A DNA stretch of 64,000 nucleotides, taken from NCBI GenBank assembly GCA_017506865.1, contig JAFCMP010000547.1, forward strand, positions 496,001-560,000, written 5' to 3'. Position 1 is the stretch's first letter. Every line of letters begins with the position of its first letter. Position numbers and translations under genes: made by a program. This DNA comes from Tribonema minus (Eukaryota; Sar; Xanthophyceae; Tribonematales; Tribonemataceae). Under the pieces are notes generated by a model. That model was not told where the DNA came from. It worked only from the letters and a program-made list of their open reading frames with translations, and did not search any database. Below, piece after piece: positions 622-59,110 of the stretch.

Positions 622-654
622 TCGTCTGTACACAGACACCCACTTGCCGGCGTT
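622..654 (-). CDS. ELM2/PLU-1 gene exon 45 (last seen)
   Basis: cactgcag|AACGCC to AGACGA|GTGAGC encodes NAGKWVSVYRR, another Trp helix. No stop is reached, so the gene continues past position 1; no exon recognised in 1-621. Confidence 0.55.
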
Positions 655-15600: not shown

Positions 15601-18600
15601 TCCATGGCGTCGCCATTGCTGAGCGCTGCTGCAGAACCGCTGTTGAGCGCTGCTGCTTGTTGTGTCGCAGCCGCGGGAACGTCCTCAAGCACCCCGCACG
15701 CTGTGAGTACCGCGGCGTGCTGTGGTGGAGGATGGGGGAACAGAGCGAGCAACAACAGGTGCCTACATGTCATCGCACTGCCGTCGCAAGAGTAGTGTAC
15801 AAAAGCCACAGCGCCGAACCAGATGACCACTGCTAGGCTAATGGTGCCCTGTTGTTTGCATCGCTTGAACAGAGTGCAAGAGACACTTGAAATACATGGA
15901 TGCAGACTCTGGTAGCGACCTCAATGTAGACCATCCGAGCATCTTCGCGCTCTGAGCGAAAATTCATACAGAGTAGAAAAGTCACAAGAGACGCAACAAA
16001 TAATGACATTCATGAAACTGCACCTGCCTGCCTACCTCGTGTCCCCACGCGTTCATGTCTGCTGACGGGCTGTTTCGCGCCCTGAGCGAGAATGCATAGA
16101 AGGTACAAAACAAAGGCCATCGAACTGCAGCAAATGATTGATTCAAAGTATAAAAACCAGACATGCCTGCCTACATACCTCGTGCACCCACGCGTTCATG
16201 TCTGCCAGCGCCTCGTTGATGCCGGCCAGATCCGCTTGCAAATCGAGCTTGAGGCTCTGAGCCTCCACTAATAATGACATTCATGAAACTACACATCTAT
16301 ACCTGCACCCACGCGTTCATGTCTGCCAGCGCCTCATTGATGCCAGCCAGATCCGCTTGCAAATCGAGCTTGAGGCTCTGAGCCTCCACTAATGATAGCA
16401 TTCATGAAGCTACACATGTATACCTACATACCTCGTGCACCCACAAGTTCATGTCTGCCAGCGCTTCCTTGATGCCAGCCAGGTCCGCTTGTAGGTCGAG
16501 CTTGAGGCTCTGAGCCTCCGCTACCATCTCGATGAGCCTGCGGCAGCGACGACGTTGATGAAAACATCAGAGTACGGTAGTGCATAGGAAGAATTGTTCA
16601 CGTGTGTGGATTGAAGCGGAGGCAACGACAGTGGAAAAGAGTTAGACTGCGGCAGTGCGCAGCAAGAATTGTTCACTTGCGCAGACGCGTCATACTTAAG
16701 TATAGGTGAAGCGGCCATAATGATAGTGAAAAACAAACGTCAGACTGCGGCAGCGCGCTGGGATAATTGGTCCTGCGCATGGACGCATCATGCGTAGGCG
16801 CAGGTCAAGCGGCCGTAGCGATGGCGAAAAGCCGTTAGACGCGTGCTTGAACCGCCAACCTTGTGAACGCTGATTCAGCGAGTGCATTGCCACGACACGC
16901 GCGTACGTGAACACATACACATCTTGTGTACACATTACCCACGTGAACCTTGAGCTATGAATACACATGTGCCTCCCGTACACAGGTATGCACTTACCTC
17001 TCGTGCAAAGTAACAACATACATACCTTGCGTACATGAAGGCATGCACACCTTCCATGCTTACATCATGTACCTGTTGTACAAGGTAAAAACATACCTCA
17101 ACGTTGAAGTGCGTGCATTACATACAATGCATACATACATACCTGGAGCGTGGTACGAGGCGGCCGGCCTGCATGTCCATGTGGCAGCGCTGAGCGCTGG
17201 CCACCCACTGCTCGCCCTGCCTGAGCAGCGCCACCAGTTCAATGTCGTCCATTATGGCCTTGTATGTACTGCGAGTGCAACAGGGAAGGTAAAGGAGGCA
17301 ATGGCGTGCCATCAGAGCGCAGTTCAAGGGTACTGCTATAACGACATGACGCAAGCCGATGAGATAGTAAGGTGATGCTTGAATACTTGAAGTACGTGGT
17401 ATCTCTTGCACTGCTAGCATCGGCAGTTGTGCCCATAGACTCAATATCATCCATGATGGTCTTGTACATGCTGTGAGCACAACACGGAAGGTAGAGGAGG
17501 CAACGGCGTGCCATCTGAGCGCAGTTCACGGTACTGATACTACAACATGACGCAAGTCGATGAGAATAAGGTGATCCGCCCCATTCTGCACAGCCCAGGC
17601 GCTGCTCCATTCGGACAAACCTCCGAAGGGACTGAGATCATTCAAGAAATAACTCATGAAGAAGGCCGCGCACTGAGAGAAAATTACTATCTAGGCGCGC
17701 CGCGTGTGCAGGTACTGTCCACTCGTCGCGACTTACTGGGGATGCTCAGCGGGCTGCGGGAAAGTTCCCATTGGATTCCCCTCCAAAGTGACTGATCATT
17801 TGCTTGACCGGCCGGTAGACTCAGACCTAATTCTAACCCTAGGGCAGACCTAACCCTAACCTTAGACCCTCTCCCTAACCCTAATCCAAACCCTTGAATC
17901 CTAATGCGCGCTGTGCACCTTCTGCGCACATGCCAGTTACTTGTTGAATACGCACATGCGCTGCACGACTTACCGGGAGTCGTTGACGCACTGGGCATAT
18001 GTTAAAGTTCGAATAGGCTACTAACCTTAAACCTAAACCTAACCCTAACCCTAAGGCGCGCTGTGCTGCTGCGCGATTGCCAGTTGCTTGTTTCACAGAG
18101 TGTGCACCGCAACTTACTGGGAGTCCTTGGCGGACTGGGGGAAGCTGGAGCGCAGCAGCAGGCCCTCCGCGTGCAGCGCCCTCAGGGCAGGCAGGGCGAC
18201 GGGGGGGTCGCCGCGGATCGCCTGCACAGCATACACGCACAGAGGCAGTGCTCAGGATAGGATGAATGGCAGCGATCAGAGAGCATTGTCCAAGGGGGGC
18301 CGGGGCGTTTGGGGGGGCAGGGGAGGGACTGCCTTCGCAGCGCATGCAAGCGATGGCTGCGTTCAGGATATGATGAATGGCAGCGCTCAGAACAAGAGGA
18401 GGAACGAGGGAGAACAGGGCAACCGGGAGAGGGGGGAGGGGCGCTGCGGAGGGCCTTCGAAGTGTACAAGACACAGCAGCTTCAGATGTTGGGGTGGTGC
18501 TTGCAGCATTGGAAGGCGCAGCATTCCAAAACATGTCCGACAGTGCACTTGTCCAAGGAGGTCAGGGCGCGGTGGTGCATACATAGGCAAATTGCAATAC

Positions 18601-21600
18601 TTACAGCAGGCTGTCAGGCCGGGCACAAAAATGCGTGATTTAGCTGGCTTCGTCTGTGCAGTATGTACGCACAGAACGAACGGTATACGCAGCGCAGCAC
18701 TGGAGGTGCAGTCGTGTGTGCCCGATTCACTCATCCATGAATCACAGTCAGCGGCGCTCAGCAAGCAGAGGTGCAGTCATTCACGTCAAGCGTGCCCAAT
18801 TCAATCACTTGTGAATCACAGCCAGCAGCGCTCAAACGGAGTTGCATTCATGTCGTGCAAGATTCATGCATCCATGAATTTTATAAATTCACGGTCAGCA
18901 GCGCTCAGCAAATGGCTCACCTCATCCACCTTAATCCGCCATTGCCGTGCCTTGAGTCCTCCCATCAGCAGCTGCGGGGGCGCACAACGCATGTCAACGC
19001 TCAGCGGTCAGCCATGCTTGGTACCACTGAGGATTACAATGGAGAACCGTTCAAGTGCTTCGGCAGCAAGCGGTGCAGAATGGTAATATTTTCTGCAGCA
19101 AACAGCATCTGACCTGACGAACGATTACATAGGGTACACCCCATACACAGCAAGCAGCCCATGTATCAGGAAGCTCAAGCGATAAGCTATAAGCTGAGCG
19201 GTAAACCAGCACGCCATGCTCTCACTGCAGGTATGTTCCGTTGCTTTTTTCGAGGTCACGCGAGCGGCAGCACATAGCGCAGAGAGCCAAAGGCGAATCA
19301 CCGCGAGTCATCACATGTCCGGACAATTGCGGCTCTGAAACTTCAGTTGGAATAATGCATGCCTAAAATGCCAAAAAGCTTGCACACAGAGTCTTGTTGG
19401 CTCCTGTGCATGTGATGGCACTGTTTGACTCGTGGCCAATAACTGCAACAGCGGCGACCACGGTTATTGGTGGAAGGCACTTGCAGCTAACCACTCCTTG
19501 TCACCGAGAGCTCTACAATCTTTTGAATCGTTTCCAATCTACCTCAAGGGGCATACCTGTTGCTCCTCCATTTCCACAGGAATCCCCTGCATGGGGGGGG
19601 GATGGGGGGGGTGCACGCAGCGGCGAGCAGTATGAGGATGCCTGCGTGTTCAGCCGCAACATGGACTGCTAACAGGCCGATACAATCAGTGCCATCAATT
19701 CGTGAACAAGAGTGGGCAACGGGCAAATTCCCAACAAATGCCAAGCGCTGCCAGAAGCGACCCTTTGGAGAGCTAGCACACAGCCGACACAAGCGCAGTG
19801 TTCATCTTGCAAGTGCAGAGGTACACAATGCGGTATGGCGTATGAGCGCGGACAGATACATACCTCAGCCTCCCTGAGGAGGTCCGTGAGAGACATGACG
19901 GTCGCGTCGCCGCCGTTTTCCAACACCTGGCGCAGGCGGCAGCGCCAACAGGCACACGGGCGGCAGTAAAAACAAAAAAAGTGTCAACGGCCGGTCCCGA
20001 AAGCAGTGACAACTAAGGGAACAGGCGTATGGAATAGAATGTGAACTTTGTGCGGAGATACTCAGGGAAGCAGCAGCGTAGTGCCATGGCCTGTCGTCGA
20101 TCTATTGTGCATGTCAAGTATAGCTTGCATCTCAGTCGTACACTCTATCAAAGGGTAAGTAGGTATCTGATAGAAGTACCTCTCCGGTTGTCGTTGAGAC
20201 ACATTCAGAAGTCACACGACGTGCAGACTCCGTACAGCAGCATCAAGTTGGACCATCATCTGGGCTTTTTCGCGCCCTGAGCGAGAATTAATAAAAGTAC
20301 CTCTCCGACGTGGCGTCACCCCTTGGTACTCGACTTAGGGTTAGGGTTAACCCTAACCCTAACCCTAACCCTAACCCTAAGGTACTCGACAAGGCCGTCC
20401 ACATGTCCCAGCAGTGCCCGGATCAGTGAGTCTCGCAAGGCTTGTCAACTACTCAGTGCATCAAAAGCTATGCATGTATGTGAAGTGTAGCTTGCATCTC
20501 TGTCACATGGTGTGCTTCATGGTATCATACTTGGGCATGTGATACCTCTCTGACGCGCGACTCAATCCTCTATTCATAAAGTATGTACTTCCGAAGTATT
20601 ATGTCGTATGCATATGTGATGCGTGACACACATCCTCTATTCATGGAGGATGTAGGTATCCCATACCTCTCTCACGCGCGACATCCACCCCTCGGCGCTC
20701 TCCACTAGGCCATTCACGTGCCCCAGCTCTTTGACGTCGAGCATCACGCCAGTGCCCTGGTCACAGTGATGCAGAATGGGAGTGAGAGTTTGCGTCCGTG
20801 AATCTGAGTCACTTGATGAACGGTACGCAGTACACTCGACAGTTCAGCCAGACTCATTGGACCATGAACCAAGCTACGTCTCGTGATCCACCACACAGAG
20901 TATCATGGCGTTTGGTATGTGTTCACATTGTGCACCAAGTTTCCTCCACCAAAGTCACGACTGCACATTGCAGAGAACCAACGAGAGAACCACAGTGTAA
21001 CGTAGTGTGTTCATACTTGTTGCGGCAAATACACTGAGGCTCTGCTTTTGTGCTTTGCGCGCTGCCTATGTTCGTGGTGCTTGCAAGTCTTGGCCAATAC
21101 GATAGCTGAGGCACTATTTTGTCAACTCATACAGCAGGACCTCCAAACAGCAACAGTATCATGTAGAAGCATCCTATTTGCGCGCCGCTCACACCTGCTT
21201 CTCGCCGAGAAGCGACTTGACATGCGCCAGGTGTCATATATGGTGATCTGTGGGCCTTCAATCCCACCACCAGTAGTTGGTGGCTTGTGTGAAAAAGACA
21301 GCAAGAGTATCACTCAAAAGCACCTTAGTTGCGCACAGCACGCACCTGCTCTTCGCCGAGCAGCATCTTGACGTGCGCCAGGTGTGTCTCGCCGGAGTGC
21401 CTCTGACGGCCCTCTGACAGTAGTCTACTTCAGAAGTATGACTTGCGTGAACAGACAGCAGATTACTTCGAAGCGTCACGCATAAGCACCTTGTTTGCGC
21501 ACCGCTCGCACCTGCTTCTCGCCGAGCAGCGCCTTGACGTACGCCAGGTTTTGTGCTTGGTGTCCCGCTGGCGTTCCTTTGACGGCCCTCCGACAGCAGT

Positions 21601-41608: not shown

Positions 41609-41996
41609 GCAATCACAGGACCTTCGGCGAGGTTGCCACCAAGTCTCGCACTTTGTCAGCGTGCGCCAGATTTACTACCTGTGTGTGTCTTGCCTCTTTC
41701 AGAGTTGAAGTACATGTGCCTGCAATTAGGGTTAGGGTTAGGCAAATCGAAGAACTGAAGTTTGAGGCAACTTCAAGCGAGACATGGTACATCGTATGGC
41801 AGTTGGCAGGGGGAATAATGCACATAGAACATAAGAACTGTATACAGTTCTAACAATCACTGCACGGCTTTTTCCATTTAAAACCTCACTCTAACCAAAC
41901 CACCCAGCGGACGTACATGATGTGGTGAAGACAACATCGTTACAGAGGCAAGTGGTGTACTCAACAACAGACGGCACATTAATACCAGGCAGGTGC
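41609..41996 (-). promoter_or_regulatory. Intergenic gap between PH gene stop and ELM2/PLU-1 gene start
   Basis: About 390 bp separates two genes on the same strand, so it should hold the terminator of one and the promoter of the next. A TTAGGG block sits at about 41,726-41,743. No TATA box or poly(A) signal was identified with confidence. Confidence 0.35.
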
Positions 41997-44162: not shown

Positions 44163-47100
44163 CTGCGCATGGGCGAAGTTGTAGCGCAGTGTACATGAGT
44201 GTGTGAGCACGTTGTGTGCTCCACAAGAGGACCGTCTTGGCATCATGAGCCTTAAATTCAAATGACTATCTGCTGCGGCTGCTGATGCTGAGCGCTTCCA
44301 TCGCGCGCTACATGTACCTGCGCGTCTGGTGCGCTTTCCGCACATGCACTTTCACAAACGATTTCGTCGCAGTTGATTGGTTGGGTGGAATGAGAGCTCG
44401 GTGTACATGCTTGTTGTTTCATAGCTTCCGTTCTCAATCGCAGTCACTCGCAAGAGACGCACGAATGGCTGCTGCTGCGGCCGCTGCCGGCACTGCAACA
44501 CCGCCCAACGCTGCCGCTGCCGCCGCTGCTGCTGCTTCTTGAGTCGCCTGCTGCACTGTGGCGCCACTACGAGCACCTGCGCATCCGCCCAAAGCCGTTG
44601 CGGTCAGCTGAACGACAGTCGCAACAGAGTGCGCCCGTGGCAGCGGGTGGTGGGTGGCATTGCGCGTTTCACATACAGGCGCAGTTCACGCGCGCAGGGC
44701 TGCGCAGTGCAACTTGCGCCTGCGCCGACTTTTGTGGTGAGTAAGCTCAAAAACGCACAGGAAACTTCAAGTTGGTGCGGTATCATAGGAGTGTGTGTAA
44801 CAAAGACGTTCTTATTGCGGCCAACCTGGAGGAGGACGACAGTGCTTGAATTTAACAACGATAAGGGCGATTGCTTCCATTTGAAGCTGAATGCACGCCA
44901 AATTCATCTTTTGGCGCTTCTGCTTGTAAGCTCACGCGAAGCCGCCCCACGCATCCACCGTTGTGCTCATCAGCGCGCCGGCAGCTCTTCTCGGCACGAA
45001 TGCAGGCGCGAGAAGGCCAGACCCCGCATTGACCAGCGAGCAAGAACAGCTAGTAAGTGGCGGCATGTCGCTCGCCGCTGCTGCCAGCAGCCTCTAGCAG
45101 GCTTGTGCAACATCCTCGATGCCCACATTCCCCTCAGCGCGAAGCACGGCGTCCTCAGTTGGGGCGGTGCCGCTTTCTGCCATCCGGCGCGCGGCGTAGC
45201 AACAGCACTGGCCCTGCTGCTCCGCGCCAAGCACGGCCACAACGCGATGGTCGCGCACTCCCGTGTTCACGGCGCAAACTTCACGACGAGCTCGCTTCTG
45301 GCGGAAGTAGGAGCAGCAGCAGCGGGGGTGATGCCGCTCTTTGCCATCCGCTTTCTGCCATCCGGTTTCTGGCAGCGCCGGAGTAAAGCGCGGTCGCGGT
45401 GCAGCACGCAACGGCCAGCATTGGCGTCGAGCGCCACCAGCGACGACGACGCTGCTGCTGCTCCTACTTGCGCCAGAAGCAGGTTCGTGGTGAAGTTCAC
45501 GTCGTGAGCACGGGCGTGCGCGAACACCGTGTTGCGGCCGTGCTTTGCACAGCGCTCTGGATGGCAGAAAGCCTTGAGAAAGCGGCATCGGCCCAGTTGG
45601 GGACGCCAAGTATCATGCTGAGGGGGATGTGGGCAATGAGGACGTTGCGCATGCCTGCCAGAGACTGCTGGCAGCAGCGAAAAGCGACATGGTATCTGCC
45701 GCTCGCTAGCTGTGCATGCTCGCTGGCCAATGCGCCTAGCTATCTCGCGCATGCTGGAAAGTGCAGCCAGCGCGCTGACGAGCGCTCGGGTGGGATGCGT
45801 GAAGCGGCTTCTGCCCTTTACAAGAAGTTGAGCGCTGCTGCACCTGCCGCTGCAACGCTCAGCGCAATAGTCTCCGCATGTCGCATGGAAACGAATCAAA
45901 TGTCGTAGGGCTCTATGTAGGTGACAAGGTGTGGTGAGCCGTCAGAATTGAATACCTTCCACCAATAACCGTGGTCGCCACTGCTGCGGCAATTGGCCAC
46001 GAGTCAAACAGAGCCACCATATCCACAGTAGTCAGGATGCTTTTGTGCATACCTCGCGACGCGCCGCGAATGACACCACCTCGCAGCAGTGGAGGTTGAG
46101 CACTGTTGCACAGGTTGAGCACTGCTGCACGTGCCGCTGCAACGCTCAGCGCAGCAGTCTCCGCATGTATACATACATACCTCGCGCCGCGCCGCCGACG
46201 ACACTCCCGCGCTGCCGCGCAGCTTCAGGCACGTCCTCAGGTGGTCGTACAGGCGGAGGTGGAGCGCTGCCGCGCCTGCTGCAGCAGCGCTCAGCGCCAC
46301 GGCCGCCTCCGCGAACGCATCGAGGAGCTCCGGGGGTGGCGAGGCCATGAAGCGTTCCGTCCAGCGCAGCAGCTGTGCAACATGCATGCAGCGAAACATG
46401 ACAGATTTTACTTCTGTGACGCTGCTGCTGGAGTGGGTCTGCTAACGCTAATTCTAGCGCTAAGAATGCCGCTATGAAGCGCTCCGTCCAGCGCAGGAGC
46501 TGCACGATACGCATGCAGCGATAGAAAGGGGCGGTACTTTAGTTGTGCCGCTGCTAAAGCCGCCCTTCAAGTGCTGCTGGGACCTGCTGACCTAGGGTTA
46601 GCTAACCCTAGCGCTACGAACGCCGCCATGAACCGCCCCGCCCCGCGCAGCAGCTGTGCGACATGCATGCAGCGATGTGAAACAGCAGTTTTTGTGAAAC
46701 AGCAGTTACATGATGCTTCGCTCAACCACTTCACTTCAGACATGGGCCTTCTGACAACAGCGCAGGTCCAGCGCAGCAGCTGCGCGACGTGCATGCAGCG
46801 ACACATGACAGAGGTTACTTCTGTGGCGCTGCTGCTAAAGAGGGTTAGCTAATGCTAACCCTGCGCTAAGAATGCCGCCATGAACCGCTCCGTCCAGCGC
46901 AGCAGCTGCGCAATATTCATGCAGCGATGTGAAACAGCAGTTTTTGTGAAACAGCAGTTACATGATGCTTCGCTCAACCACTTCACTTCATACACGGGCC
47001 TTCTAACAGCAGCGCAGGTCACAAGAAGTTGAGATGTTCGTAGCGTGGAGCAGCTGTGAGGCGATGGCCAGGCCCGCGTCGGACTGCAGCAGCGGCTGGC

Positions 47101-50100
47101 GTGTCGAGTGAAGGGACTTAGGGTCAGGGTTAGGGTTAGGGTTAGTCGTGTTGCGGGCGTCACGTACACACACAGCAGGTTACGCGCCATGCGCGTTTGA
47201 CTTGTGTGAGAAGGTCGCGGTGTGTTGCAAGCGCCGGCGATGTACAGGCACCTGCAATGCGCGATGGGCTTGAACTTGCGGTGTGGTAACAGAGTCATAA
47301 ATATACAGTCACCTGCAGTGCACCAATTCAACTTGAGCAAGGGCATCTGTACTTGCAATCGTCCCGAGTATACAGTCGCCTGCAACGTGCCCTTGACTTG
47401 GTGGGGGGGTCTGCGTGACATTTTGTTGTGTCAGCCTGTCTTTCAAGAAAAAGGAAGTACAAGTATATGTAGTCACCTGCAATGCGCCATTGAGTTGAGG
47501 GAGAAGGTCCGCGTTGCGTGGCAAGTTTAACAAGTACACGATCATCTCAACGCGCCAATGACTTGAGTGATGAGACGCGCGTCACATTGCGTTTGCGAGC
47601 CAGCTCATGACGTACTTCGAAGTATGCGCTGCAAACACTCACCTGCAATGTGCCATTGAGTTTTTGGCGCGGTCGTGCAAGTATCTACAGTCATCTTGGT
47701 GTTTGTCGCACTGCGTTGCGAGCCAACTCATGACGTATGCACTGCATACACTCACCTGCAATGCGCCACTGAGTTTAGGCGTGGCACTGCTGGCTGCTGA
47801 CATCGGCATAGTGTGGCAAATGTCACAAGTATACATTCATCTCGACGCGTCATGGACTTGAGTGACAGGACCTGCATCGTGCTGCATTGCGAGACGCCTT
47901 AATTATATAAGGTGAGCCACATCATGAGGTGTGTAAGTATGTACTGCATACACTCACCTGCATAGCGCCATTGAGTTTTGGCGTGGTCCTGCTGGCTGCC
48001 GAGGCCTCCTGCCAGTGCCGCACGTCCATCTCGATGACGGCGCAGTCCTTGCGGACCTGAACGAGCACGCATAGGAATCAACAAGCATACGCGCAAGCAA
48101 GCGTCAGGTGTTAATTTCCAGTAGTCTTGGGCCGCATGATATGCCATGGGCAAATATCAGGGCACATGTCGTCATGCATCTTCACGAACAAATGACGTTA
48201 CCAGCAGAGTTGGAGCGAATGGTAAGCACAAAGTATATGATTGTGCCCTGGAGCACAGGGTGTGGACCTCAAATGCAGCGGGGCGGCTGTACAGATGCAT
48301 TATGGTGGGTATCGAGCACCAGAGCAATCCCCCCTCCCCCCCTGCCCAGCTTTCTAACATCAGCACGCACCAGGTCAGAACGACAATGCGTCAGTGACTG
48401 TATGGCAATGCCAACCCAAGCACGGGCATCTCTTGCAACTTGCGTTCGGCCACGCAAGTTGGTATATGACCATGAAGAAAGAGCTCCGTGGGTCACAGGT
48501 CGAGTGCATTACTGCAGCATCAGAGTCCGGTCCCTACCGCTCATCATCACCAATCCCCATCTTTCAGCGCAGTGGCTGATGCACGAGCCGCGTCTTCACA
48601 TTCCTCGGGATGTATTCCTGCGCTTGCGTTCGACAGTAAGACAGATACTCCAATGACAACACCAACTTCCATTGCACTGACGGTGAGTGACTTGCCCGAG
48701 CCCATGCACCAGCGCTCAGCTCCCTGCCGCACCCAGCACCGGCGCCTGGCACGGTATCTCGCGAACGCCATGCTTCGTCAGCTGGTCACCACCAGCCTTA
48801 GGGTTAGGGTTAGCTCGTGCTGCTTGCATGGCAAGTTCAACTGCAACTCTCGCGCCTCTTGGACAATTCAGCACTCCGATTAGCTTTCCTAACTTCAAGT
48901 TCAACTGCGTGTCGCCTCCGCACTTTCCCCCGTCTCCAGTCTGAACGCTCCTCCTGCTCACGCAAGAGCAGCGCTGCGCACATTGCAGCCTCACCTCGAG
49001 CCCGTGTCTTGAGGTTAGGGTTGGCGTCCCTCGCCACGCACACCACTTCACTCACAGCGCGATAGCGCAATGTTGCATGATCAAGCACCACAAATCACCC
49101 CCCAGCGCCCTGTCACCGCCGAGCGCGCGCTTGCCGCCGTGGCCTCGCCTCGTGTCACTCGTTACGCACACTGCTTCACTCGCAATGCGATGGCGCGATG
49201 CTGCATCGTAATTCACCAAACGTCACCCCCCTTCTGATTCTTCTTCCTACCAGTGGAGCGTCTCTGACCTGTTCAAGGGCTACCGCGTCCAGCCCCCTGT
49301 CGCCACCCAGCGCGCGCTTGCCGCCGTGGCCCGCTTGTGAGATGAGCGCTGCCACATAGAGCGTCACCAGGCGCAGCGCGACGACGGCGTCCATGGCGCC
49401 TCTGACCGTGCCCGGGAGCGTCGCGGGCTGCGCGTTGCGCCACTGCACGACCGCATCGAGCAGCGCGGTCGTCACCTGCGCCGCAGCGAATGAAGCGCAG
49501 CGCGAACTTTGCGACGTCAGGGGCAGGGCTAGGGCTAGAATTATGGCCCTCATTTTCATCCCAATGCTACTCCTGAGCCCACACCTGGCTAAGCGGCCAG
49601 GCGCAGCGCGACGACGCCCCTGACAGTGCCGGAAGCATCGTGGGCTGAGCGCTGCGCCACTGCTCACACGCAAGAGCGGAACTGCCGTCACCTGCCATGA
49701 TGGTTCAGAGGGATGCGACTGTCAAAATATGCGACTGCCCAGTGTCAGAATACACCATACTTGAAGTACAGCGTCCGCAGCGCTGCCGCACATGGAGTGA
49801 CGCACCTCGCCCGTGCGCTATGCCCCATTGCGGCAGTACGCGGTTAAGTTCAAATGGGCTTGTGCTGGACCATCAAAACATTATCAGAACACCATAGTTG
49901 AAGTACACGCATGAAGTGACGCACCTCGCCCTTGCGCCACGCTCCCGAGAACAGCGCTTCGCCCACAAATGCCACCCCCCCTCACATCCTGAGCGGCACC
50001 ACTGCCATATGCCACAACCTTTCCAACACCTAAACATATTCTGAAGTGCTTCGAATTGTAGAGTTTGAAGTAAGGAGGTTCCGGAGCGCTGCCGCACATG

Positions 50101-52516
50101 AAGTGACACACCTCGCCCGTGCGCCACGCCCCCGAGAACAGCGCCTCACTCACAGACGCCACCCCCCCTCACGTCCTGAGTGGCACCACCGTCACAACCT
50201 CCCTGACATCAAAACATCGTACTTCTGCTTCGAATAATAAAGGTTGAAGTATGGAACTTCCGCAGAACTGCCACACTTGAAGTGATGCACCTCGCCCATG
50301 CGCCACGCCCCCGAAAACAGCGCCTCGCCCACGGACGCCGCCGCCCCCGCGCGCCAGAACGCCTCGGCGACCGCCACCGCGCACGCGCGCGCACGCCCCA
50401 TACTTTCACACAGCATCAAAACATCAAACTTGAAGTAGAGTGGCCGGAGTGACGCACCTCGCCCGTGCGCCACGTCCCCGAGAACAGCGCCTCGCCCACG
50501 GACGCCGCCGCGCCCGCGCGCCAGAACGCCTCCGCGACCGCCACCGCGCACGCGCACTACGCCCCATACTTGAAACAACATCAAAACATCAAACTTGAAG
50601 TAGAGTGCCCGGAGCGCTGCCATCGGAGCGAGCGACGCACCTCGCCCGTGCGCCACGCCCCCGAGAACAGCGCCTCCCCCACGGACACCGCCGCGCCCGC
50701 GCGCCAGAACGCCTCGGCGACCGCCACCGCGCACACGCGCGCGCACGCCGCGCACGCCCCCCCCACCTCCTGAGCGATGCCACGGTCCACATACTCAGCG
50801 CGGCGGATAGAGAAGGCCTCGATGTCGCGCGCCGCCGCCGCCGCCGCCGCCGCGAAATGCAGGCAGGCGGCGTCGGTGCTGCCGCCGCTGGGGGGTTCAG
50901 ACAGGGGCGGGGGCTGCGCTGCCGCTGCAGTCATGAGGCCGAGAAAGACGAGGGAGCAGTTGGTGGCGAGGGACTGGAGGGCGCTGGTGTCGACGCCGGG
51001 GGCGCCTTCGAGGCACCTGCACGAGGGGGGGGGGGGGGCGGCGGCGGGGGAAACGAGCGTCGGTGACGGGCTGCTGTTCTGCTGCTGCTGCTGATGATGG
51101 TTGTGGGTGAGGGCCTCGTTAACTTCAACTTGCCCCTGCCCAATTTGTTGCCAGCCAAAGTTGGGATTTGTACACGCTGCATGGCCGCTGCTCTGTTGCT
51201 GACAAGCACAGGCAGCGGATTGCTGAGTCAAATACGGTTTCATGCACTCCGACAGATGCCTGTGCAGGCGCCGCTGGCAAACTTCAACTGCACGTCCAAG
51301 CTAGGCCGCAGGCAAACTGCATGTAGACGCACCGCAGCCCTTCTTCAAGCGTGCCTATCAGCGGCTCTGCGAGGCTGGCGCGCGCGTCAGCGTCCCCTCT
51401 GCAGAGCGCTGCCACAGCCGCTGACCAGCGCTGCTCGACCTCCGCTGCGGCAGCGCTCACCGCCGCCGCCGTCAGCGCGCCCGCGTCCTGCACAGACCAT
51501 GGCGGCACGCAACAACGTCTTACCTGACTCAGCGATGCAAATAGATGCTTCTATACATCAGTATCAAGGGGTCAGGGGTTGAATGACCATCACATGCCTT
51601 TGTGTACGGCTTGGACAACAGTCGCATGCGGTGCGTGGCGACGCTGGCTGCGCGCGGCGCGAAGGGTATGTATAGCTGCCGACAGGCTCAGTGTTGATGT
51701 ACCGCACGCCTCTGCGGCTGGAATGCCGTCTCTGTGCTCACCGCGGGGGGCGCGAGATGCACCTACCGACCTGCCGACGAGGGTTGACGCTAACCCTAAC
51801 CCTAACCCTAACCCTAGCCCCGCACCATGCAAGGCTGCTGCGGGTGCACGTAAATGTCGCCGAATGCCCTCTACTGCATCCGGGACGCGTATGTAAGGAG
51901 TCTCCTGCGTGGACGCTGAAACGATCGCCCTGGAATGCAAGGCACGTATGCACTTCCTTCTCGGGGGGTGTGTCAAACGCTGGAAAGCTTGCGCACAGGA
52001 GTCTTCTGGCTCCTTTGGATAGGTGGCACTGTTTGACTCGTGGGCTATTGCTGCAGTAGCGGCTACCACGGTCATTGGCGGAAGGCGCTGGCGGCTGACC
52101 ACACCTTGTCACCTAGAGCTCTACGATCTGCTGATTCGTTTCCATGTATGTACAAACGGACCCGTCTCGCAGGGCCTGGAGTCGTTGCTGTCGGAACCGC
52201 GCGAGCGCCTGGACCCCTGCGTGCAGATGAGAGGAGGCGCTCGTGGAGCGTACCGTTCAGGTGACTCTCCTTAACTTCAATTTGAACACCGTTCAGGCGA
52301 CTCTCCCTGAATTGAATGTGAACACATGTTTGTTACTGACTGACTTCTGGTGCACAAGCGTCGTGTGAACTCCTTCTCAAACAGCAAGCAGTCACCTGCA
52401 AGTGCGCGCGGATGTCGATGCGCTCCCCCTCCGCGATGGGCGTGACCGCGCGCACGACCGTCTCCACGCGCGCGGCAACAGACAGCAGCGCGGCGGCGTC
52501 GTGCCACGCCGCAGCA

Positions 52517-52556
<40 letters not shown>

Positions 52557-55500
52557 GCGGCGCGTCCACCCCCATGTGCGGCTGCAGCTCCAGCAGCAGG
52601 CGCGAGAGCATGATGCGCTGGCTCTCGGTCGTCCAGGCGTGGCAGAAGCGCTCGAGGCGCGCGCGCGCGGGCGGGGAGAGGTCCGCGCAGTGTTGTGCGT
52701 TCTCCTGCTCCGCGTCGAAGTCTGCGACGAGGCCCTACCGGGGGGTGAGGGGGGAGCGGGTGGGGGGTGGAGGGGTGGCGGGGCGGGGGGGGGAGGGGGA
52801 GGGGGGCATGGGGGAGGTGGACATCAGCGAAGCGCGTCACGCATGGTTAGATCTTGCCTGATTATTGATGTTGGTCGCCCTGAGGTGCATGAGCTTAACG
52901 CGCCATCAAATGTGATGATGACCCTCATTGCGCGAGGCTCTGCATGTTTGCAAGAACAGGCGTTGCGGGCCGCTGCAGAAGTAAATGCATGAATCATGAG
53001 AACACTCTCACTCGCCTCAATGTCTGCCACGACGCGGTGCGCGCCCCTGCACGCGCGCTCCACGGGGGTCATGCGCATCGCTGCCGCCCGCTCAGTTCAT
53101 GAATTCACAAACGTGGATTCACTCACTCAATGTCCGCGTCATGCATGGCTGCCGTGCGCTCAATCGATAAGTTCACAAATGTGGATTCACTCACCGCAAT
53201 GACCGCCATCATGCGGTGCGCGCCCCTGCACACGCGGTGCGTTCAATTCACAAATGTGAATTGACTCAGTTGTGAATTCACTCACCTCAATGTCCGCCAT
53301 GACGCGGTGCGCGCCCCTGCATGCGCGCTCTACGGGAGTCCTACGCATCGCTGCCGCGCGTTCGCTGGCGCTGCCCTCTAGCAGCTCGTTCAGCCTATCG
53401 CTTATCCAGCCGGACCTGCGGGAAACAGAATAAATACCATTTCATTTTCATGTGCCTGTTCATGATGGCGTGAAACGAGTCACACATTCATGCGATGGAC
53501 AGAACATCATTGATTCGTTTTGATGCCGGCACACTGAGTGCATGATTTGTTTCACAGGTGCACGGGCTCAGTCACATATTTATGTGTGAACTTTGAACCA
53601 CATGCTCGCTGGCGCTGCCCTCTAGCAGCTCGTTCAGCCTGTCGCTGATCCAGCCGGACCTGCGGAAAGCAGAAAAAGCTCATTTACAGTTGCCTGTTCA
53701 TTGAACGCGTGAAATGAGTCACGCATTCATGTGACCGACAGAACATCATCTCCTGCCGGCACAGAGAGTGCATGACTTGTTTCACAGGTGCATGGGCTCA
53801 GTCACAGTGTGTAAACTTTGAACCACATGTTCGCTGGCGCTGCCCTCTAGCAGCTCGTTCAGCCTGTCGCTGATCCAGCCGGACCTGCGACAAGGAGAAC
53901 AAGCTCATCTTAAGTGCACGTTCATTGGATGGCATGAATTGATTCACATGTGCATGTCACCTACAAACACATCCCTTCAATGCCTGCGCACTGATGGCAT
54001 GATTTGATCCACAGTTTCATGGTCTTGACGCCAGGCTGGGAGCACGATCATCGCATGTCGACGACAGCCCGCAGCAGCAACGCGCACTCACATGATATAC
54101 TTTGAAGTAGTGAGGGTTGCATCAAGATTCAATGATATGATTAGGGTCAGCAAACCAGTGTTTGGGAGTACGGTTGAGCACCCTTTGTCGTCCTCCGGAT
54201 GGCCGCAATTAGGAACCTCTGCGTGCCACGAATGATCTTCATTGCTGAGTACCAGATTCCAGGGTGAACTTTAGGGATGTTTTAGGGCAAGACACCTGTC
54301 GTCCTCTTCCAGATTGGCCGCAATGAGGAACCTCTCAGTCACCAGCCGCGTGGACCAGTCCGTGTTGTCCTCCTGCTGCTCCTCATAGGCGTGCTGGGAT
54401 CCGCGTCGGCAGTACACCTGCAGCAACACCAATATCATAGCGTGGATGACTTCAACTTTAACTTCCCAACAGTTTGGAGGCTTTTTGTGGGTACGGACAG
54501 CTGTGTACCTCTTTTGGTCACTTAGGGCATTGTACATGATACCCGACAACAAAGTAGACATTTCGGGGATGTCATGACTACAAGAATTTGGCAACAGCAT
54601 ACTGATGGCTGGGAGCGTCACCCCCAACTTCAACTTCAAAGACTGAGAGCGTCACCGCTTGTACGCACGCTGCGTTGGGAGTACACCTGCACCAACCACA
54701 ATTCCATACTATCGATTACGGAGTATGTGATGACTACATGCATGAGCGATGGCAGGACACGAAGGGTGAGAGCGGAACTGTTATTTGGAGTGCTAACTGC
54801 ACTGGCAGTGCAGCGAGCATCAAGAAGTACTTGCGCACTCATCTCGCTTCTAATCTTGCTTGAAGGCACCTTGACACCCATCGGTGTGGTGTCAGGCGCC
54901 CTTGCCTAGACCTCACACACGGCGGATGAGAGAAATTGTGTTCCGCAGCTTCGACTGTCATACATTTAATAAGGAAAACCGCGCCCTAGACTGCCTTGAA
55001 AACAGTACACTGCATGAGTGCACAATTGAAACTTTGCAGTGCCATTCGAATACGAATGCACTGCCGCACATGAGCTGCCAGTATCTGACTGCCTACTGAC
55101 GCTATGACGGGCCCTCAGGGCCCCCTACAAGTACATGTCCAGGACCACATGACCTTCAGCTGTATGCCTAGCAACACTTGCCTGTGTTCAACAAAGCAGA
55201 CTGTTGCTGGAAAACTCTCTGACAAAATGGCAGAGCAGATCACCCATATTAGAGCCTGTTGACACAGCACATGCGTCTGCACGATCCACAGCGCACGCGC
55301 GACAAGCAAGATGTCTCGCCCGGGCACTCGTATACATGCCTGCCTGCAGCACGAATACTGCCTTTGTAAAGGTCAACTTCAAGTTCAACTTCAAGAGCAC
55401 TATACGTACCTGTCCAGTGTACTTGAGCTGGCTCTTGGCGTCCGACATGGCGGCCTTGAGTACACGCACCCACATCTGGCACGAGGGCTCCGTTGACGCC

Positions 55501-57131
55501 TTCAGCACCATGGACTTGGCGGAGGCGCTCTCCTTCTGCAGCAGCAGCAGCAGCAGTGACGGCGGCGGTGGCAGCAGCGGCAGCAGCATCAGCAGCAGCG
55601 GCGGTAGCAACAGCAGCAGCATCAGCAGCAGCGGTGGTGGCAGCAGCCGCAGCGGCAGTGGCGGCAGCGGTAGCAGTGGCGGCGGCGGCAGCAGCAGCGG
55701 CAGCGGCAGCAGCGGCGGCGGCGGTATCAGCACCGGCAGCGTCGGCAGCGGCGGTGGCGGCAGCAGCAGCAGCGGCAGCAGCAGTAAGAAGAGGTCCACC
55801 AAGTGGAGGCAATCAGCGATTCATGATAATCTCATCACTCGAAGCAGCTGACAGGCAAACCTGAGAAGCGGCTGCACTTTGCAGCAGCGGCAGGCTGCCT
55901 GCTGTGGGGATTAGGGTCAGGGCTAGGGTTAGGGTACCCTGAGCTCAAGCGGCACAACAGATGCACTGTCTTCTCGTCAGCAGCAGCAATAAGTGCATCG
56001 AGCAACGGGCACAGCAGTCGTGCAGCCAATGCGATAGACTTTCCTCAGGAGACGCAACACCGCTGAGTCCAGGAAGAATAATGATGGGTACGGAAAAACC
56101 AACATCCAAGGCAATCTGGGCAACACGCACTCTGAGAGGCACGTCCGCCGCAGCAGTGCGCACACACCGCGCACCTATGCCTTGCAGCAGCGCTAGTCGC
56201 AGCAAACAGTGATCCGACTGGTGTGAGGTCAAGTAGACCCTCCGTGTAACGTGGTCCACATTTTGATGCATATACAATGCAGCCGTGAGCTGTACGTCAA
56301 GTTCGCTCTGATGCACAGGCTCCACAGACGCTGTAAGCTTCGCGAATGCGCCACTTGCTGCACCACCTTGGGCTTACCTGACATGTTGTTCAATTGCAGC
56401 AGCAGTAGCAGTGAGTGAACCAGTTTTTCAGGCAACCCATTGCACTGCTTTGCCACAATGGCGCCTCTGCTGCTACTACATTGACACGCTGCTGCAACAT
56501 GGCAAAATGGAAGCAACAAGCTGCCCGCCCGCTGCCTGCTGCCGCACCCAGGTGTCATTCCAAGCACTCTGACGACCTTCAGCAGCAGCAGGACCCTCTT
56601 ACGCTTCTCGTGCAGCAACGGCAAAAACCCGCAGTGCTATTACAGCCTACAGCTGCAGTCACTGCATTGTTGGTGTCAAGCAGCAGCAGGCGACACACCA
56701 GGGCGTATGCGAAGTGAAGTACGAGTGCAAGTTGCTTCAATCACAGCATACTGCACCTAGACTCATGTAAGAAGAAGTCTAACGACAACAGAAAATTCCC
56801 TCAACTCACGCAGTCAACAGCAAAAGCCCTCCCTCCAGCCTTGTGCTCCACGGATTGTACATCCCGAGCAAGGTCCAGGGTCAGCTCCGGGTTGCCCAAC
56901 TGCCAGTCCCTTCTTGTGGTGTAGCAGGTGAAGTAGCCCTGCTCATAGGTGAAGAACTTTGTCACGGGCTTTTTCTTGAAGAGCAGGCTGCCTGCTGGCT
57001 GCACCTCCAGAGGGCCTTCCAGCTTTTCCTCCATGCTGCTTGCAGCTCAGGTCAGAAAGGTTATGAATTTACGTATGCGAGTCCGGCTTGACCGGGATCT
57101 GCGGGACAGCAGAGGACGTGCTGTCTGCCAT
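41997..57131 (-). CDS. PH-domain protein with helical middle and low-complexity tail (14 exons)
   Basis: Gene-level entry. About 1,450 residues: a 20-residue start, a PH domain (exons 1-3), roughly 600 residues of Ala/Leu-rich helical sequence, and a 721-residue disordered tail ending in a stop. The PH call rests on GSLLFKKK...FFTYEQGYFTCY, later FAVDC, and the closing helix CQMWVRVLKAAMSDAKS with its invariant Trp. PH domains bind phosphoinositides or proteins at membranes, so a membrane-associated role is inferred. A PH domain followed by a helical region ending in GLDAVALEQ...VIEMDVRHW is loosely like exocyst Exo84-type proteins, but I would not name it. Junctions from exon 1 to the 47,958 exon agree in phase; the junctions around the 47,023, 46,181 and 44,448 exons do not fully agree and may hide another exon. 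Confidence 0.62.
44448..44550 (-). CDS. PH gene exon 13 (tentative)
   Basis: tgtgcag|CAGGCG to CTTGCGA|GTGACT; QATQEAAAAAAAAALGGVAV then an Ala run and IRASLA. End phase 1 does not match the next exon in phase 0. Confidence 0.42.
44890..45885. repeat. Large imperfect inverted repeat
   Basis: Left arm about 44,890-45,330, right arm about 45,440-45,885, spacer about 110 bp. Shared blocks include CTGCTGCCAGCAG, GATGCCGCTTTC/GGTGCCGCTTTC, AAGCACGGCC and AGTAGGAGCAGCAGCAGC. The left arm is open on the plus strand; the right arm shows the same peptides (RCCQQ.LAG..N.L.AHIPLS) on the minus strand. Lies in a PH-gene intron. Confidence 0.75.
45888..46050 (-). mobile_element. Dispersed ~170-bp element copy
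   Basis: Frame reads MVALFDSWPIAAAVATTVIG; the last part has a small shift. In a PH-gene intron. Confidence 0.65.
46181..46372 (-). CDS. PH gene exon 12
   Basis: ttgcacag|CTGCTG to GCGCGAG|GTATGT, 64 residues: LLRWTERFMASPPPELLDAF, AGAAALHLRLYDHLRTCLKL. Four 5'-edge copies (LLRWTERF-like) lie upstream between 46,470 and 46,930; a 3'-edge trace lies at about 46,045-46,070. Confidence 0.68.
46470..46930 (-). repeat. Tandem 5'-edge copies of PH gene exon 12
   Basis: Four copies (about 46,480, 46,640, 46,775, 46,890) with the acceptor and LLRWTERF.AAF-like starts, all upstream of the intact exon. Confidence 0.75.
47023..47095 (-). CDS. PH gene exon 11 (tentative ends)
   Basis: cgccag|CCGCTG; encodes PLLQSDAGLAIASQLLHATN then ISTS. 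The donor TTCTT|GTGACC leaves phase 1, which does not fit the next exon, so the end is uncertain. Confidence 0.48.
47250..47820 (-). repeat. Tandem 3'-edge copies of PH gene exon 10
   Basis: Copies ending in TTGCAG|GTGA.. or close variants at about 47,755, 47,640, 47,475, 47,385, 47,318 and 47,250. The first keeps AASSATPKLSGALQ; later ones keep only the last 20-30 bases. Confidence 0.75.
47958..48056 (-). CDS. PH gene exon 10
   Basis: cgttcag|GTCCGC to ATGCAG|GTGAGT. VRKDCAVIEMDVRHWQEASA and PKLNGAMQ. Six or so progressively shorter 3'-edge copies follow to 47,250. Confidence 0.7.
49269..49475 (-). CDS. PH gene exon 9
   Basis: ggcgcag|GTGACG to GAACAG|GTCAGA, 69 residues: TTALLDAVVQWRNAQPATLP, VALRLVTLYVAALISQAGH, GGDRGLDAVALEQ. 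A 5'-edge copy lies upstream (49,580-49,690), a 3'-edge trace downstream near 49,110-49,145. Confidence 0.7.
49760..50570 (-). repeat. Tandem 3'-edge copies of PH gene exon 8
   Basis: Five copies at about 50,458-50,560, 50,288-50,395, 50,108-50,175, 49,920-49,990 and 49,800-49,830, spaced about 150-190 bp. Each keeps the exon end and the GGCGAG|GTGCGT-like donor; the ones farther away are shorter or internally deleted. Confidence 0.8.
50641..51016 (-). CDS. PH gene exon 8
   Basis: tcgtgcag|GTGCCT to GGCGAG|GTGCGT, 125 residues: LQSLATNCSLVFLGLMTAAA, RDIEAFSIRRAEYVDRGIAQ and AEAFWRAGAAVSVGEALFSG. Five further copies of its 3' edge with donor follow downstream to 49,760. Confidence 0.7.
51333..51487 (-). 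CDS. PH gene exon 7
   Basis: tgtgcag|GACGCG to GGCTGCG|GTGCGT. Helical: AAAAEVEQRWSAAVAALCRG and LAEPLIGTLEEGL. Phase 0 to 2. Confidence 0.66.
51786..51816 (+). repeat. CCCTAA block
   Basis: Four to five perfect CCCTAA units within an intron of the PH gene. Similar short blocks stand at about 4,935, 10,278, 15,255, 29,207, 30,074, 41,726, 47,118 and 48,799. Confidence 0.75.
51982..52152 (+). mobile_element. Dispersed ~170-bp element copy
   Basis: Frame reads MALFDSWAIAAVAATTVIGG. It abuts an inverted copy of exon 37 of the ELM2/PLU-1 gene. Confidence 0.68.
52153..52370 (+). repeat. Inverted copy of exon 37 and flanking introns
   Basis: Plus-strand GLESLLSEPRERLDPCVQMR followed by GTTCAG|GTGACTCTCC and the second donor copy, then tgaattgaatgtgaacaca and gactgacttctggtgcacaag, matching 8,650-8,851 in reverse. 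Together with the adjacent dispersed element the shared segment is about 350 bp. Confidence 0.78.
52396..52734 (-). CDS. PH gene exon 6
   Basis: cggtag|GGCCTC to TTGCAG|GTGACT, 113 residues: GLVADFDAEQENAQHCADLS, RIMLSRLLLELQPHMG, a poly-Gly run from a GCC repeat, then VETVVRAVTPIAEGERIDIR. Phase 0. Confidence 0.7.
53010..53270 (-). repeat. 3'-edge copies of PH gene exon 5
   Basis: Copies near 53,019-53,085 and 53,195-53,240, with a trace at about 53,130, all carrying the exon end (RACRGAHRV.ADIE in the best) and its donor. Confidence 0.72.
53286..53415 (-). CDS. PH gene exon 5
   Basis: ttcccgcag|GTCCGG to ATTGAG|GTGAGT. SGWISDRLNELLEGSASERA and RACRGAHRVMADIE. Two 5'-edge copies lie upstream (53,605-53,670; 53,832-53,895) and 3'-edge copies downstream (53,010-53,270). 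Confidence 0.74.
53605..53895 (-). repeat. 5'-edge copies of PH gene exon 5
   Basis: Two copies (53,605-53,670; 53,832-53,895) with acceptor and RSGWISDRLNELLEGSASE, more similar to each other than most intron sequence; a longer unit of about 227 bp including intron is repeated. Confidence 0.8.
54296..54417 (-). CDS. PH gene exon 4
   Basis: gctgcag|GTGTAC to GACGACAG|GTGTCT. VYCRRGSQHAYEEQQEDNTD and RLVTERFLIAANLEEDD. A degraded 3'-edge copy lies downstream at 54,180-54,235, and an inverted fragment at 44,807-44,842. Confidence 0.7.
55410..55535 (-). CDS. PH gene exon 3 (PH domain, C-terminal helix)
   Basis: ctgctgctgcag|AAGGAG to GGACAG|GTACGT, 42 residues. MVLKASTEPSCQMWVRVLKA includes the PH helix Trp. 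The acceptor tract is an expanded CTG/CCG repeat of about 260 bp (55,536-55,800). Confidence 0.72.
55536..55800. repeat. CTG/CCG trinucleotide repeat before an acceptor
   Basis: GCAGCAG/GGCGGC repeat of about 260 bp. On the gene strand it is a CTG/CCG run ending ctgctgctgcag|AAG, so it supplies the polypyrimidine tract of PH gene exon 3. Confidence 0.7.
56810..57035 (-). CDS. PH gene exon 2 (PH domain, strands 1-6)
   Basis: gcaagcag|CATGGAG to GACTGC|GTGAGT. Contains EGPLEVQPAGSLLFKKK, KFFTYEQGYFTCYTTRRDW and AGGRAFAVDC, the normal PH strand order. Phase 0 at the end. Confidence 0.72.
57073..57131 (-). CDS. PH gene exon 1 (start)
   Basis: ATG at 57,131 gives MADSTSSAVPQIPVKPDSH then CATAC|GTAAAT in phase 2; the C that opens the next exon completes Thr, giving an in-frame join into MEEKLEGPL. 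The short Ser/Pro-rich start is plausible but not proven; the downstream ATG at 57,034 is the alternative start. Confidence 0.5.
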
Positions 57132-58104: not shown

Positions 58105-58575
58105 TCAGCAAACATCATGGCAGCAGGCGAGCCGCGGGTCACACTGCACGATGTGAACCGTGCTGAGACGCTGCAGTCCTGAGCGCGTTCGCGGAGGCAG
58201 GTGTTTGGGCACACTGTGCGCAAGCTCCGCACCACTACACACGCAAGCATGGCGCAGCTGCAGCGCTTGACTTGGAGAGGCCTGCGCGTGCGCAGTGTAG
58301 CGCGAGGCACCACGACGCATGAGGTGCCACCTATCATCCGCTGCGCTGACAATAGGGCCTGGTGCAGACTTACCTGCCATCGAGTACATCAATCAGGCGA
58401 TTGGCCTCTCGCTCTCATCGTCAGAGTGGATGTGTGCGTCCTAATAGCCTATGCCTATAAGTACGATCCCAACGTCCCGCATGCAACGCACGATCTGTGT
58501 ACGTGGCGTACGCCAACAGTGTCGAGGATGTCATGTACGCTGGCCGCTGCTACCAGACGTAGCTGACAGCCTGCC
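58105..58575 (+). pseudogene. CBP/p300-type HAT domain, N-half, degraded copy
   Basis: Plus-strand copy of the segment intact on the minus strand at 58,550-59,110. It opens with GEPRVTLHDVNRAETLQ and then a stop; fragments such as DVCVLIAYAYKYDP and NARSVYVAYANSVEDV appear in shifting frames. It is an inverted duplicate with frame breaks; not expected to encode a working domain. Confidence 0.55.
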
Positions 58576-59110
58576 AAGCCGGGGCACTCCACAAATATGC
58601 GGTCTCACATCTCACCCTGCGGGTGTGTTCGAGGTAGACGCCAATTACCTCCTGGTATATATGGCTGCGAACCGCGTCCGGGTATACGTACTCGACGCTG
58701 TCGACGTACGCTGCATACACGGACTTAGCGTTGCGAGCAGGAGCGCTGGGGCCGTACTCGTATGCGTACAACATCACAACGCACACATCTACGCCGTCGA
58801 TGCGCGCAAACAGCCCAATGGCCTTTATGGTGTAGCTGATGGTACAGGGCAGATCCGCACCAAGCCCCGCCCTGAACATGTGCTGAATGATAATCGGCAC
58901 GTCACAAGTCCTAGTGCCGCTTGCCAGCACGCGCACGCTCAGGTCCCCCTCGTTGAGCGCTGCTGCGGCAGCCTGCGCGCGTAGTCGTCAAGAGCTTGAG
59001 TACACCGTGCCCGAACACGCGAACGCGCTGAGGACATTGTGCTGCAGCGTCTCAGCACGGTACACATCATACACTGTGACCCGTGCCTCGCCTGCCGCCA
59101 CCGCCACTGC
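58550..59110 (-). CDS. CBP/p300-type histone acetyltransferase (KAT11) domain, N-half
   Basis: The open part (58,550-58,936) encodes RVLASGTRTCDV, AIGLFARIDGVDVCVVMLYA, YEYGPSAPARNAKSVYAAYV, DSVEYVYPDAVRSHIYQEVI, GVYLEHTRRVRCETAYLW. This follows the p300/CBP and plant HAC order: F..IdGVDvC, EyG...P..N...VYi.YlDSV.yf.P, vYhEiLIgYLey, and the Trp of IWACPP (here LWSAP). Such domains acetylate histones in the nucleus. The 5' part (GEARVTVYDVYRAETLQ at about 59,100) is followed by a stop in frame, so a splice or break lies between. It may be a gene fragment rather than a full gene. Confidence 0.62.

What the first reader, a model, noticed from the sequence alone, without database searches (positions are those of the whole stretch)
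622..57131. Introns grown by tandem duplication across exon-intron borders, with strict polarity
For at least 20 exons of two neighbouring genes, partial copies obey one rule: 5'-edge copies (with acceptor) lie only upstream, 3'-edge copies (with donor) lie only downstream, and one full-length exon remains in frame. Clear cases: exons at 53,286, 50,641, 47,958, 46,181, 32,339, 30,761, 25,488, 21,767, 28,245, 35,385, 16,432. A tandem duplication with one breakpoint in an exon and the other in its intron gives exactly this. It would be a general mode of intron growth leaving ladders of competing splice sites. The sequence shows the pattern; the mechanism is inferred.
Basis: partly seen in the sequence, partly recalled or inferred. 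Interest (0 to 1): 0.9.

Follow-up and report, generated by a model that had tools for sequence, protein, structure and literature searches.

The report
Exon-border tandem duplications lengthening algal introns
In this yellow-green alga, short stretches of DNA that straddle the edge of an exon are copied side by side into the neighbouring intron, so introns grow and fill with decaying copies of exon ends and spare splice sites while the real exon stays whole; it matters because what makes such introns long is an open question.

Summary
Confirmed, and found elsewhere in the genome; the tandem-duplication reading is mostly right, with two additions. [quoted passage not shown] At the 11 listed exons all 43 edge-type pairs lie on the predicted side; 10 further pairs are exon-internal, one unexplained. 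Independently, at 73 kinesin exons 87 of 87 edge-type pairs obey the rule; 10 more are internal. Polarity itself is forced by geometry. Tandem origin is supported by residual homology of intron parts (24 of 44; control 4 of 44). New: (1) border-crossing duplications exceed a simulated uniform process (strict test 10 border: 8 intron-only, share 0.56; simulated 0.15-0.17; P<=0.0014), and exon breakpoints lie a median 46.5 nt from the splice site; (2) the exon part of some copies decays more slowly than neutral simulation allows (11 of 25 against 0-11%). Copies look non-coding; 64 of 79 keep AG or GT. No transcript or second species could be tested.

The parts
53286..53415 (-). full exon (acceptor at 53415, donor at 53286)
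53606..54025 (-). upstream 5'-edge copies of exon 53286 (54-56 nt of exon plus acceptor and intron)
53008..53236 (-). downstream 3'-edge copies of exon 53286 (two overlapping repeat pairs)
50641..51016 (-). full exon (donor at 50641; acceptor is the best of several candidates)
49749..50555 (-). downstream ladder of 3'-edge copies of exon 50641, 5 pairs
47958..48056 (-). full exon
47518..47800 (-). downstream 3'-edge copies of exon 47958 (two pairs)
46181..46459 (-). exon with donor at 46181; acceptor uncertain (46459, 46427 or 46372)
46625..46928 (-). upstream copies of the 5' part of exon 46181 (one classed 5'-edge, two classed internal)
35385..35495 (-). full exon
35649..36049 (-). upstream 5'-edge copies of exon 35385 (22-23 nt of exon)
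32339..32586 (-). exon with donor at 32339; acceptor uncertain (32586, 32526 or 32403); with 32403 the upstream array would lie outside the exon
32597..32912 (-). upstream 183-nt tandem array next to exon 32339
32207..32253 (-). downstream 3'-edge copy of exon 32339 (43 nt of exon, 91%)
30761..31144 (-). full exon as modelled; the likely coding frame appears to change inside, so it may be two exons
   Evidence: ORFs
31216..32050 (-). upstream ladder of 5'-edge copies of exon 30761, 5 pairs, up to 94% identical
30317..30684 (-). downstream 3'-edge copies of exon 30761 (two pairs)
28245..28339 (-). full exon (donor at 28245; acceptor 28339 or 28367)
27551..28131 (-). downstream ladder of 3'-edge copies of exon 28245, 4 pairs
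25488..25656 (-). full exon
25799..26258 (-). upstream 5'-edge copies of exon 25488, 3 pairs
24621..25398 (-). downstream 3'-edge copies of exon 25488, 4 pairs; the nearest is 98.6% identical over 71 nt with 82 nt unaligned between
21767..21919 (-). full exon; a weak PLU-1-like profile match (E 0.023, below Pfam's cut-off, about 21596-21922) covers it and runs on past the donor
21994..22366 (-). upstream 5'-edge copies of exon 21767 (two pairs)
21165..21715 (-). downstream ladder of 3'-edge copies of exon 21767, 4 pairs
16432..16537 (-). full exon
15988..16391 (-). downstream ladder of 3'-edge copies of exon 16432, 3 pairs
24722..24840 (.). young tandem duplication (unit 60, 96.6% identical, 1 nt between units) overlapping no recognised exon, though inside the span of exon 25488's downstream ladder

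Best explanation
In this alga short DNA stretches (distance to the nearest copy 75-378 nt at 43 of 44 borders, median about 160) are duplicated in direct tandem, several times more often across exon-intron borders than within introns. One end of the unit lies inside the exon, typically 37-61 nt from the splice site, the other in the intron. Only one full exon remains, so the truncated copy must lie upstream if it carries the acceptor edge and downstream if it carries the donor edge; the mRNA can stay unchanged and the intron gains one unit. Repeats of the event give ladders. Copies then drift without evident coding constraint, most still carrying AG or GT. Shown: tandem geometry, polarity, border excess against simulation, largely non-coding drift. 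Inferred: that the duplications come from fill-in and end-joining at staggered breaks that are commoner near exon borders, and that gene conversion from the exon refreshes some copies.
For: Polarity 87 of 87 edge-type pairs at kinesin exons, 43 of 43 in the window. Inverted copies 6 against 109 direct. Residual homology of intron parts 24 of 44 against 4 of 44 in controls. Border excess over a simulated uniform duplication process run through the same pipelines: 20 of 50 borders with copies; 6 independent intron-only clusters; ratio 0.30 against 2.4-3.3; an earlier run gave 1.9-2.6; 11 against 6; P<=0.0004; exons and exon-derived sequence masked; 10 against 8; P<=0.0014. Exon breakpoints close to borders: median 46.5 nt, quartiles 37 and 61, at 44 borders; against uniform, KS P=5e-9. 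Nearest-copy distances show no multiple-of-3 preference (13, 18, 13). Copy-private changes by codon position 81:60:104, exon-private 4:0:18. Four young tandem pairs that overlap no recognised exon have 0, 1, 0 and -2 nt between units, so little or no microhomology.
Against: The exon part of some copies is far better preserved than its intron flank: 11 of 25 pairs with exon identity >=0.92 have >=40 unaligned nt between units and <=40 aligned intron columns, against 0 of 79, 4 of 69 and 7 of 62 in neutral simulations; in one L035 copy-copy pair 2 of 66 exon-derived and 19 of 72 intron positions differ. 20 of 44 unaligned stretches show no significant homology. Exon-copy differences are richer in synonymous changes than random change would give (245 of 486 against 27% expected), only partly explained by the exon's own silent changes. 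No freshly made border-crossing duplication with both ends intact was seen among the >=93% pairs. The simulation is simple (random sequence, one unit-length distribution) and the real sample is 25 introns from one gene family in loci chosen for several separated exons; L035 contributes many pairs. Exon borders are heuristic, eight set by hand; breakpoints are alignment ends with a 20-nt floor.
Confidence: 0.66

Rival explanations
1. Uniform tandem duplication. Short tandem duplications strike everywhere; those inside exons are purged, those inside introns fade fast, and those on borders are merely the ones we still see because the exon half is conserved. Nothing is special about borders.
For: Intron-only tandem duplications exist. 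Polarity needs nothing more. A conserved exon lengthens the visible lifetime of border copies.
Against: Simulations that include the slower decay of the exon half and the same detection give a border share of 0.15-0.19 against 0.56-0.65 observed. Exon breakpoints are not uniform along the exon.
Confidence: 0.2
2. Insertion with long target-site duplication (introner-like or transposon insertion, or filler DNA captured at a staggered break): 30-90 nt of exon edge duplicated around an unrelated insert.
For: Several high-identity pairs are separated by 47-164 nt that BLAST does not align; in L050 the copy runs straight into the sequence that precedes the exon. 20 of 44 unaligned stretches show no homology. 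Some further pairs at >=93% with large gaps (25-29 nt long, or in stretches that look like unrecognised exons) were not classified.
Against: Sensitive alignment finds residual homology of the supposed inserts to the copy's flank in 24 of 44, 9 of 13 among the young-looking (controls 4 of 44 and 0 of 13). The four pairs of 59 nt or more at >=95% that overlap no recognised exon and are not near-exon are plain tandem with no insert. 37 border pairs align through 60 or more intron columns.
Confidence: 0.07
3. The copies are functional: alternative exon ends, splicing decoys or enhancers kept by selection.
For: Slow decay of the exon part in a subset; AG kept in 42 of 49; synonymous excess in exon-copy differences.
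Against: Changes private to copies are spread over codon positions (81:60:104; 147 of 245 non-synonymous); exon-copy alignments hold 10 stop-making changes and 62 gap columns. Splice dinucleotides are kept no more than neighbouring exon dinucleotides (P 0.18 and 0.52). In L038, L040, L045 and L050 exon-derived and intron parts of copies decay about alike; in L035 and L046 the exon-derived part decays less.
Confidence: 0.08

Closest known systems
[quoted passage not shown] potato RdRp case, PMC4974935, abstract and Introduction read)
   Same: A tandem duplication within a gene; in the potato case the unit crosses an intron-exon boundary, as here.
   Different: There a new intron is created, using a donor inside the duplicated exon piece. 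Here no new intron is modelled: an existing intron is lengthened and the mRNA can stay the same; it recurs in ladders and in many genes.
Small tandem duplications made by CST-Pol alpha-primase fill-in at breaks with 3' overhangs, then end-joining (PMC8355091, abstract, section list and Introduction read)
   Same: Short direct tandem units; little or no microhomology in the four young pairs here.
   Different: Breaks, enzymes and overhangs are untested in this alga; units here are mostly above 100 nt; preference for exon borders is not described in the parts I read.
Introner elements (recalled; named as a model in the PMC4974935 Introduction)
   Same: Direct repeats flank sequence that ends up spliced out.
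   Different: The repeats here are exon ends, and the intervening sequence is often related to the local intron; whether it also belongs to a mobile family was not searched for.
Long introns of brown algae and Chlamydomonas (PMC12477816 and PMC8226300, passages seen)
   Same: Ectocarpus has long introns (median 524 bp on autosomes); the Chlamydomonas paper says the advantage of introns well above minimum length is unknown and calls the driving mechanism likely ancient.
   Different: The passages I saw discuss transposons or length distributions, not copies of exon ends.

Membership tests
Tandem duplication (any) | Direct orientation, local, with predicted side of the truncated copy | tested here: met
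Tandem duplication (any) | Homology covers the whole unit, intron part included | tested here: inconclusive
   Present in many units; residual in 24 of 44 unaligned stretches; not detectable in 20 of 44
[quoted passage not shown]
   No relative's genome or transcript was available; my exon models need no new intron
Fill-in and end-joining tandem duplication | Units abut with little or no microhomology when young | tested here: inconclusive
   Met in 4 young pairs that overlap no recognised exon (one lies within a ladder span); no intact young border pair to test
Fill-in and end-joining tandem duplication | Dependence on end-joining and fill-in enzymes | not testable with these tools
   Needs genetics
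Introner elements | Insert belongs to a dispersed sequence family | not tested
   I compared each stretch with its own locus, not with one another
Alternative or mutually exclusive exons | Copies show coding constraint | tested here: not met
   Copy-private changes 81:60:104 by codon position; a synonymous excess in exon-copy pairs is left partly unexplained

The most novel reading that the evidence does not exclude
Exon-intron borders are hot spots for DNA duplication in this lineage: something tied to transcription, splicing or exon chromatin causes breaks with one end about 35-60 nt inside the exon and the other in the intron, and this border-directed duplication, with later refreshing of the copies by the exon, is a main driver of intron length in this alga and perhaps its relatives.
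Probability: 0.35. Interest if true: 0.82.

Novelty: new variant of a known kind. Interest (0 to 1): 0.62.

Why it matters
It offers a concrete, countable source of intron length in an algal genome; for Chlamydomonas the paper I saw in passages calls the driver of long introns unknown. It also means that introns in these genes carry decoy splice sites attached to true exon sequence, a natural experiment in how the spliceosome picks the right border. If the border excess holds genome-wide, it points to a link between transcription or splicing and DNA breakage that could be tested directly.

Tried and rejected
Long target-site duplication with filler was my leading idea; it was set aside because 24 of 44 flanks keep residual homology and four young pairs away from recognised exons carry no filler. 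On rereading I found further high-identity pairs with large gaps that I had not classified, so I raised that rival from 0.06 to 0.07. Coding copies were rejected by codon-position counts. Selection on the spare splice sites: no signal (79 of 87 pairs counted, 1 not aligned, 7 dropped because the border I had set lacks AG or GT). A uniform process: rejected by simulation. Gene naming was mostly unproductive: minus-strand frames of 15-60 kb (two of three frames for 15-30 kb) gave only HAT_KAT11 above cut-off and four sub-threshold hits, PLU-1, DUF6084, Complex1_49kDa and IBB; nine ORFs gave one hit; a JmjC search found nothing in the window's contig. A protein search with a concatenate of window exons found nothing, so no annotated gene model was obtained. 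Literature: nine keyword searches (capped listings, only 20 of 930) showed one related case, the potato paper, and no listing that describes ladders of exon-edge copies in introns; most subscription journals are not held. The published Tribonema minus genome report is recalled, not seen.
Full report
Where we are. The window is 64 kb of contig C544 in a genome of 158,181,000 bases and 554 contigs. A kinesin open frame from that genome matches a Tribonema minus KIF17 protein, identical over the aligned stretch except at a splice boundary (286 of 293), so the source is Tribonema minus (Xanthophyceae) or very close kin. The genes discussed lie on the minus strand. The only domain above its cut-off in the frames I searched is a histone acetyltransferase (HAT_KAT11) near 58.55-58.96 kb; a sub-threshold PLU-1-like match lies at about 21.6-21.9 kb.

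It is not a local oddity. In 20 loci chosen because they showed several separated matches, 73 exons gave 54 5'-edge pairs, all upstream, and 33 3'-edge pairs, all downstream, plus 10 internal pairs; 37 of 73 exons have a copy and 44 distinct borders have an edge copy. Pairs nearer than 40 or farther than 2500 nt, or with under 20 nt of exon, were dropped; one match 5180 nt away seen is among these. In 25 of the 30 shorter kinesin loci (the other five overlap the first set), 2 of 25 exons had non-simple copies, both 3'-edge and downstream, and 3 had simple-repeat hits only. Same-strand hits in the own locus numbered 109 against 6 inverted, and 22 in total (10 same-strand) in three decoys of equal length.

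What polarity means. If one full exon must remain, a tandem unit that starts in the upstream intron and ends in the exon can only leave its truncated copy upstream, and the mirror case only downstream. Polarity therefore speaks against dispersed copying and inversion but does not by itself show anything special about borders.

Tandem origin. Many border units align through both exon and intron parts (37 pairs with at least 60 intron columns; pooled mismatch 0.10 in the exon part and 0.20 in the intron part). In 44 pairs BLAST left a stretch of 30-260 nt between the units unaligned; Smith-Waterman against shuffles finds residual homology there in 24 of 44, against 4 of 44 for mismatched controls. 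Four young pairs (>=95%) that overlap no recognised exon abut with 0, 1, 0 and -2 nt between units. Long inserts flanked by target-site duplications are thus unlikely as the main explanation, though 20 of 44 stretches show no homology and some high-identity gapped pairs were not classified.

Copies look non-coding. Where two or more copies allow changes to be assigned, copy-private changes fall 81:60:104 on the three codon positions (98 synonymous, 147 not), exon-private changes 4:0:18. Against this, exon-copy differences as a whole are 245 of 486 synonymous where random change would give 27%, and copy-copy mismatch is somewhat higher at third positions (0.155, 0.112, 0.206); the exon's own silent changes explain only part of the first. 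The spare acceptor AG is kept in 42 of 49 aligned copies and the spare donor GT in 22 of 30, no different from neighbouring exon dinucleotides (P 0.18 and 0.52). Nearest-copy distances show no multiple-of-3 preference (13, 18, 13).

Borders are over-represented. In 25 complete kinesin introns (about 23 kb) 13 hold an edge copy by the first count; by a later count 20 of 50 borders carry copies, with 6 independent intron-only clusters. A simulation of uniform tandem duplication with constrained exons and neutral introns, analysed by the same code, gives an intron-only to border ratio of 2.4-3.3 against 0.30 observed (an earlier version gave 1.9-2.6). Requiring at least 45 intron columns leaves 11 border and 6 intron-only events (share 0.65; simulated 0.16-0.19; P<=0.0004). 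Masking exons and exon-derived sequence leaves 10 and 8 (0.56; simulated 0.15-0.17; P<=0.0014). Exon breakpoints lie a median 46.5 nt from the border, quartiles 37 and 61, far from uniform along exons of median 158 nt (KS P=5e-9). Intron repeat cover with exon parts masked is 0.14-0.33 within 400 nt of a border, 0.07-0.10 at 400-600 nt and 0-0.03 beyond. Caveats: one gene family, few introns, loci chosen for several exons, a plain simulation, and alignment ends used as breakpoints.

An anomaly remains. Of 25 pairs with exon identity >=0.92, 11 lack aligned intron homology (gap >=40, <=40 intron columns), against 0 of 79, 4 of 69 and 7 of 62 in three simulations (border-weighted, neutral copies). 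In 25 copy-copy pairs exon-derived sequence differs by 0.115 and intron by 0.169 (P 1e-5, pairs not independent), driven mainly by locus L035; L038, L040, L045 and L050 show near equality, L046 a lower exon-derived rate. Gene conversion from exon to copy, acting only where similarity stays high, would explain this; selection on a few copies is the alternative. I could not decide.

Mechanism. Fill-in of staggered breaks followed by end-joining makes short tandem duplications in human and mouse cells (PMC8355091, abstract, section list and Introduction) and fits abutting units. Why borders are favoured is unknown; transcription, splicing or exon chromatin are guesses.

Known context. The one boundary-crossing duplication I found described is in a potato gene, where it created a new intron (PMC4974935, abstract and Introduction). 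Brown-algal introns are long (Ectocarpus median 524 bp) and discussed in terms of transposons in the passages I saw (PMC12477816); the Chlamydomonas paper calls the driver of intron length likely ancient and the advantage unknown (PMC8226300, passages). My nine searches (capped listings) showed no report of exon-edge ladders. I rate it a new variant of a known kind.

Noticed in passing
window 58118-59100 and 59217-59933: Two long imperfect palindromes (66% and 72% identical to their own reverse complement); the first spans the HAT_KAT11 exon, so part of a histone acetyltransferase exon has an inverted copy beside it.
   Followed up: partly
window 44938-45811: A third long palindrome (about 70% self-complementary).
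   Followed up: no
window 8652-8933, 52089-52366, 9199-9275, 10767-10933, 19358-19536, 38331-38514, 45884-46048, 24433-24478: A dispersed repeat family of up to about 280 nt, both strands, one pair 89% identical over 284 columns; looks like a short mobile element.
   Followed up: partly
window 20348-20377, 28527-28544, 30080-30097, 47127-47144, 51791-51814: Telomere-like TAACCC/GGGTTA runs inside the gene region; 71 such hexamers in the window against about 16 in shuffles. They could mark healed breaks.
   Followed up: partly
window 62889-63839, minus strand: A 317-aa open frame with no Pfam match at E 0.01.
   Followed up: partly
kinesin loci L005-L034 against L035-L054: Two kinds of kinesin gene: larger exon matches mostly without copies, and many small exons in long introns with copies.
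   Followed up: partly
L035 exon 5136-5327: Two of its three downstream 3'-edge copies have an exon part 97-100% identical to the exon (the third 82%) while flanks differ by about a quarter: the strongest case of a refreshed or protected copy.
   Followed up: partly
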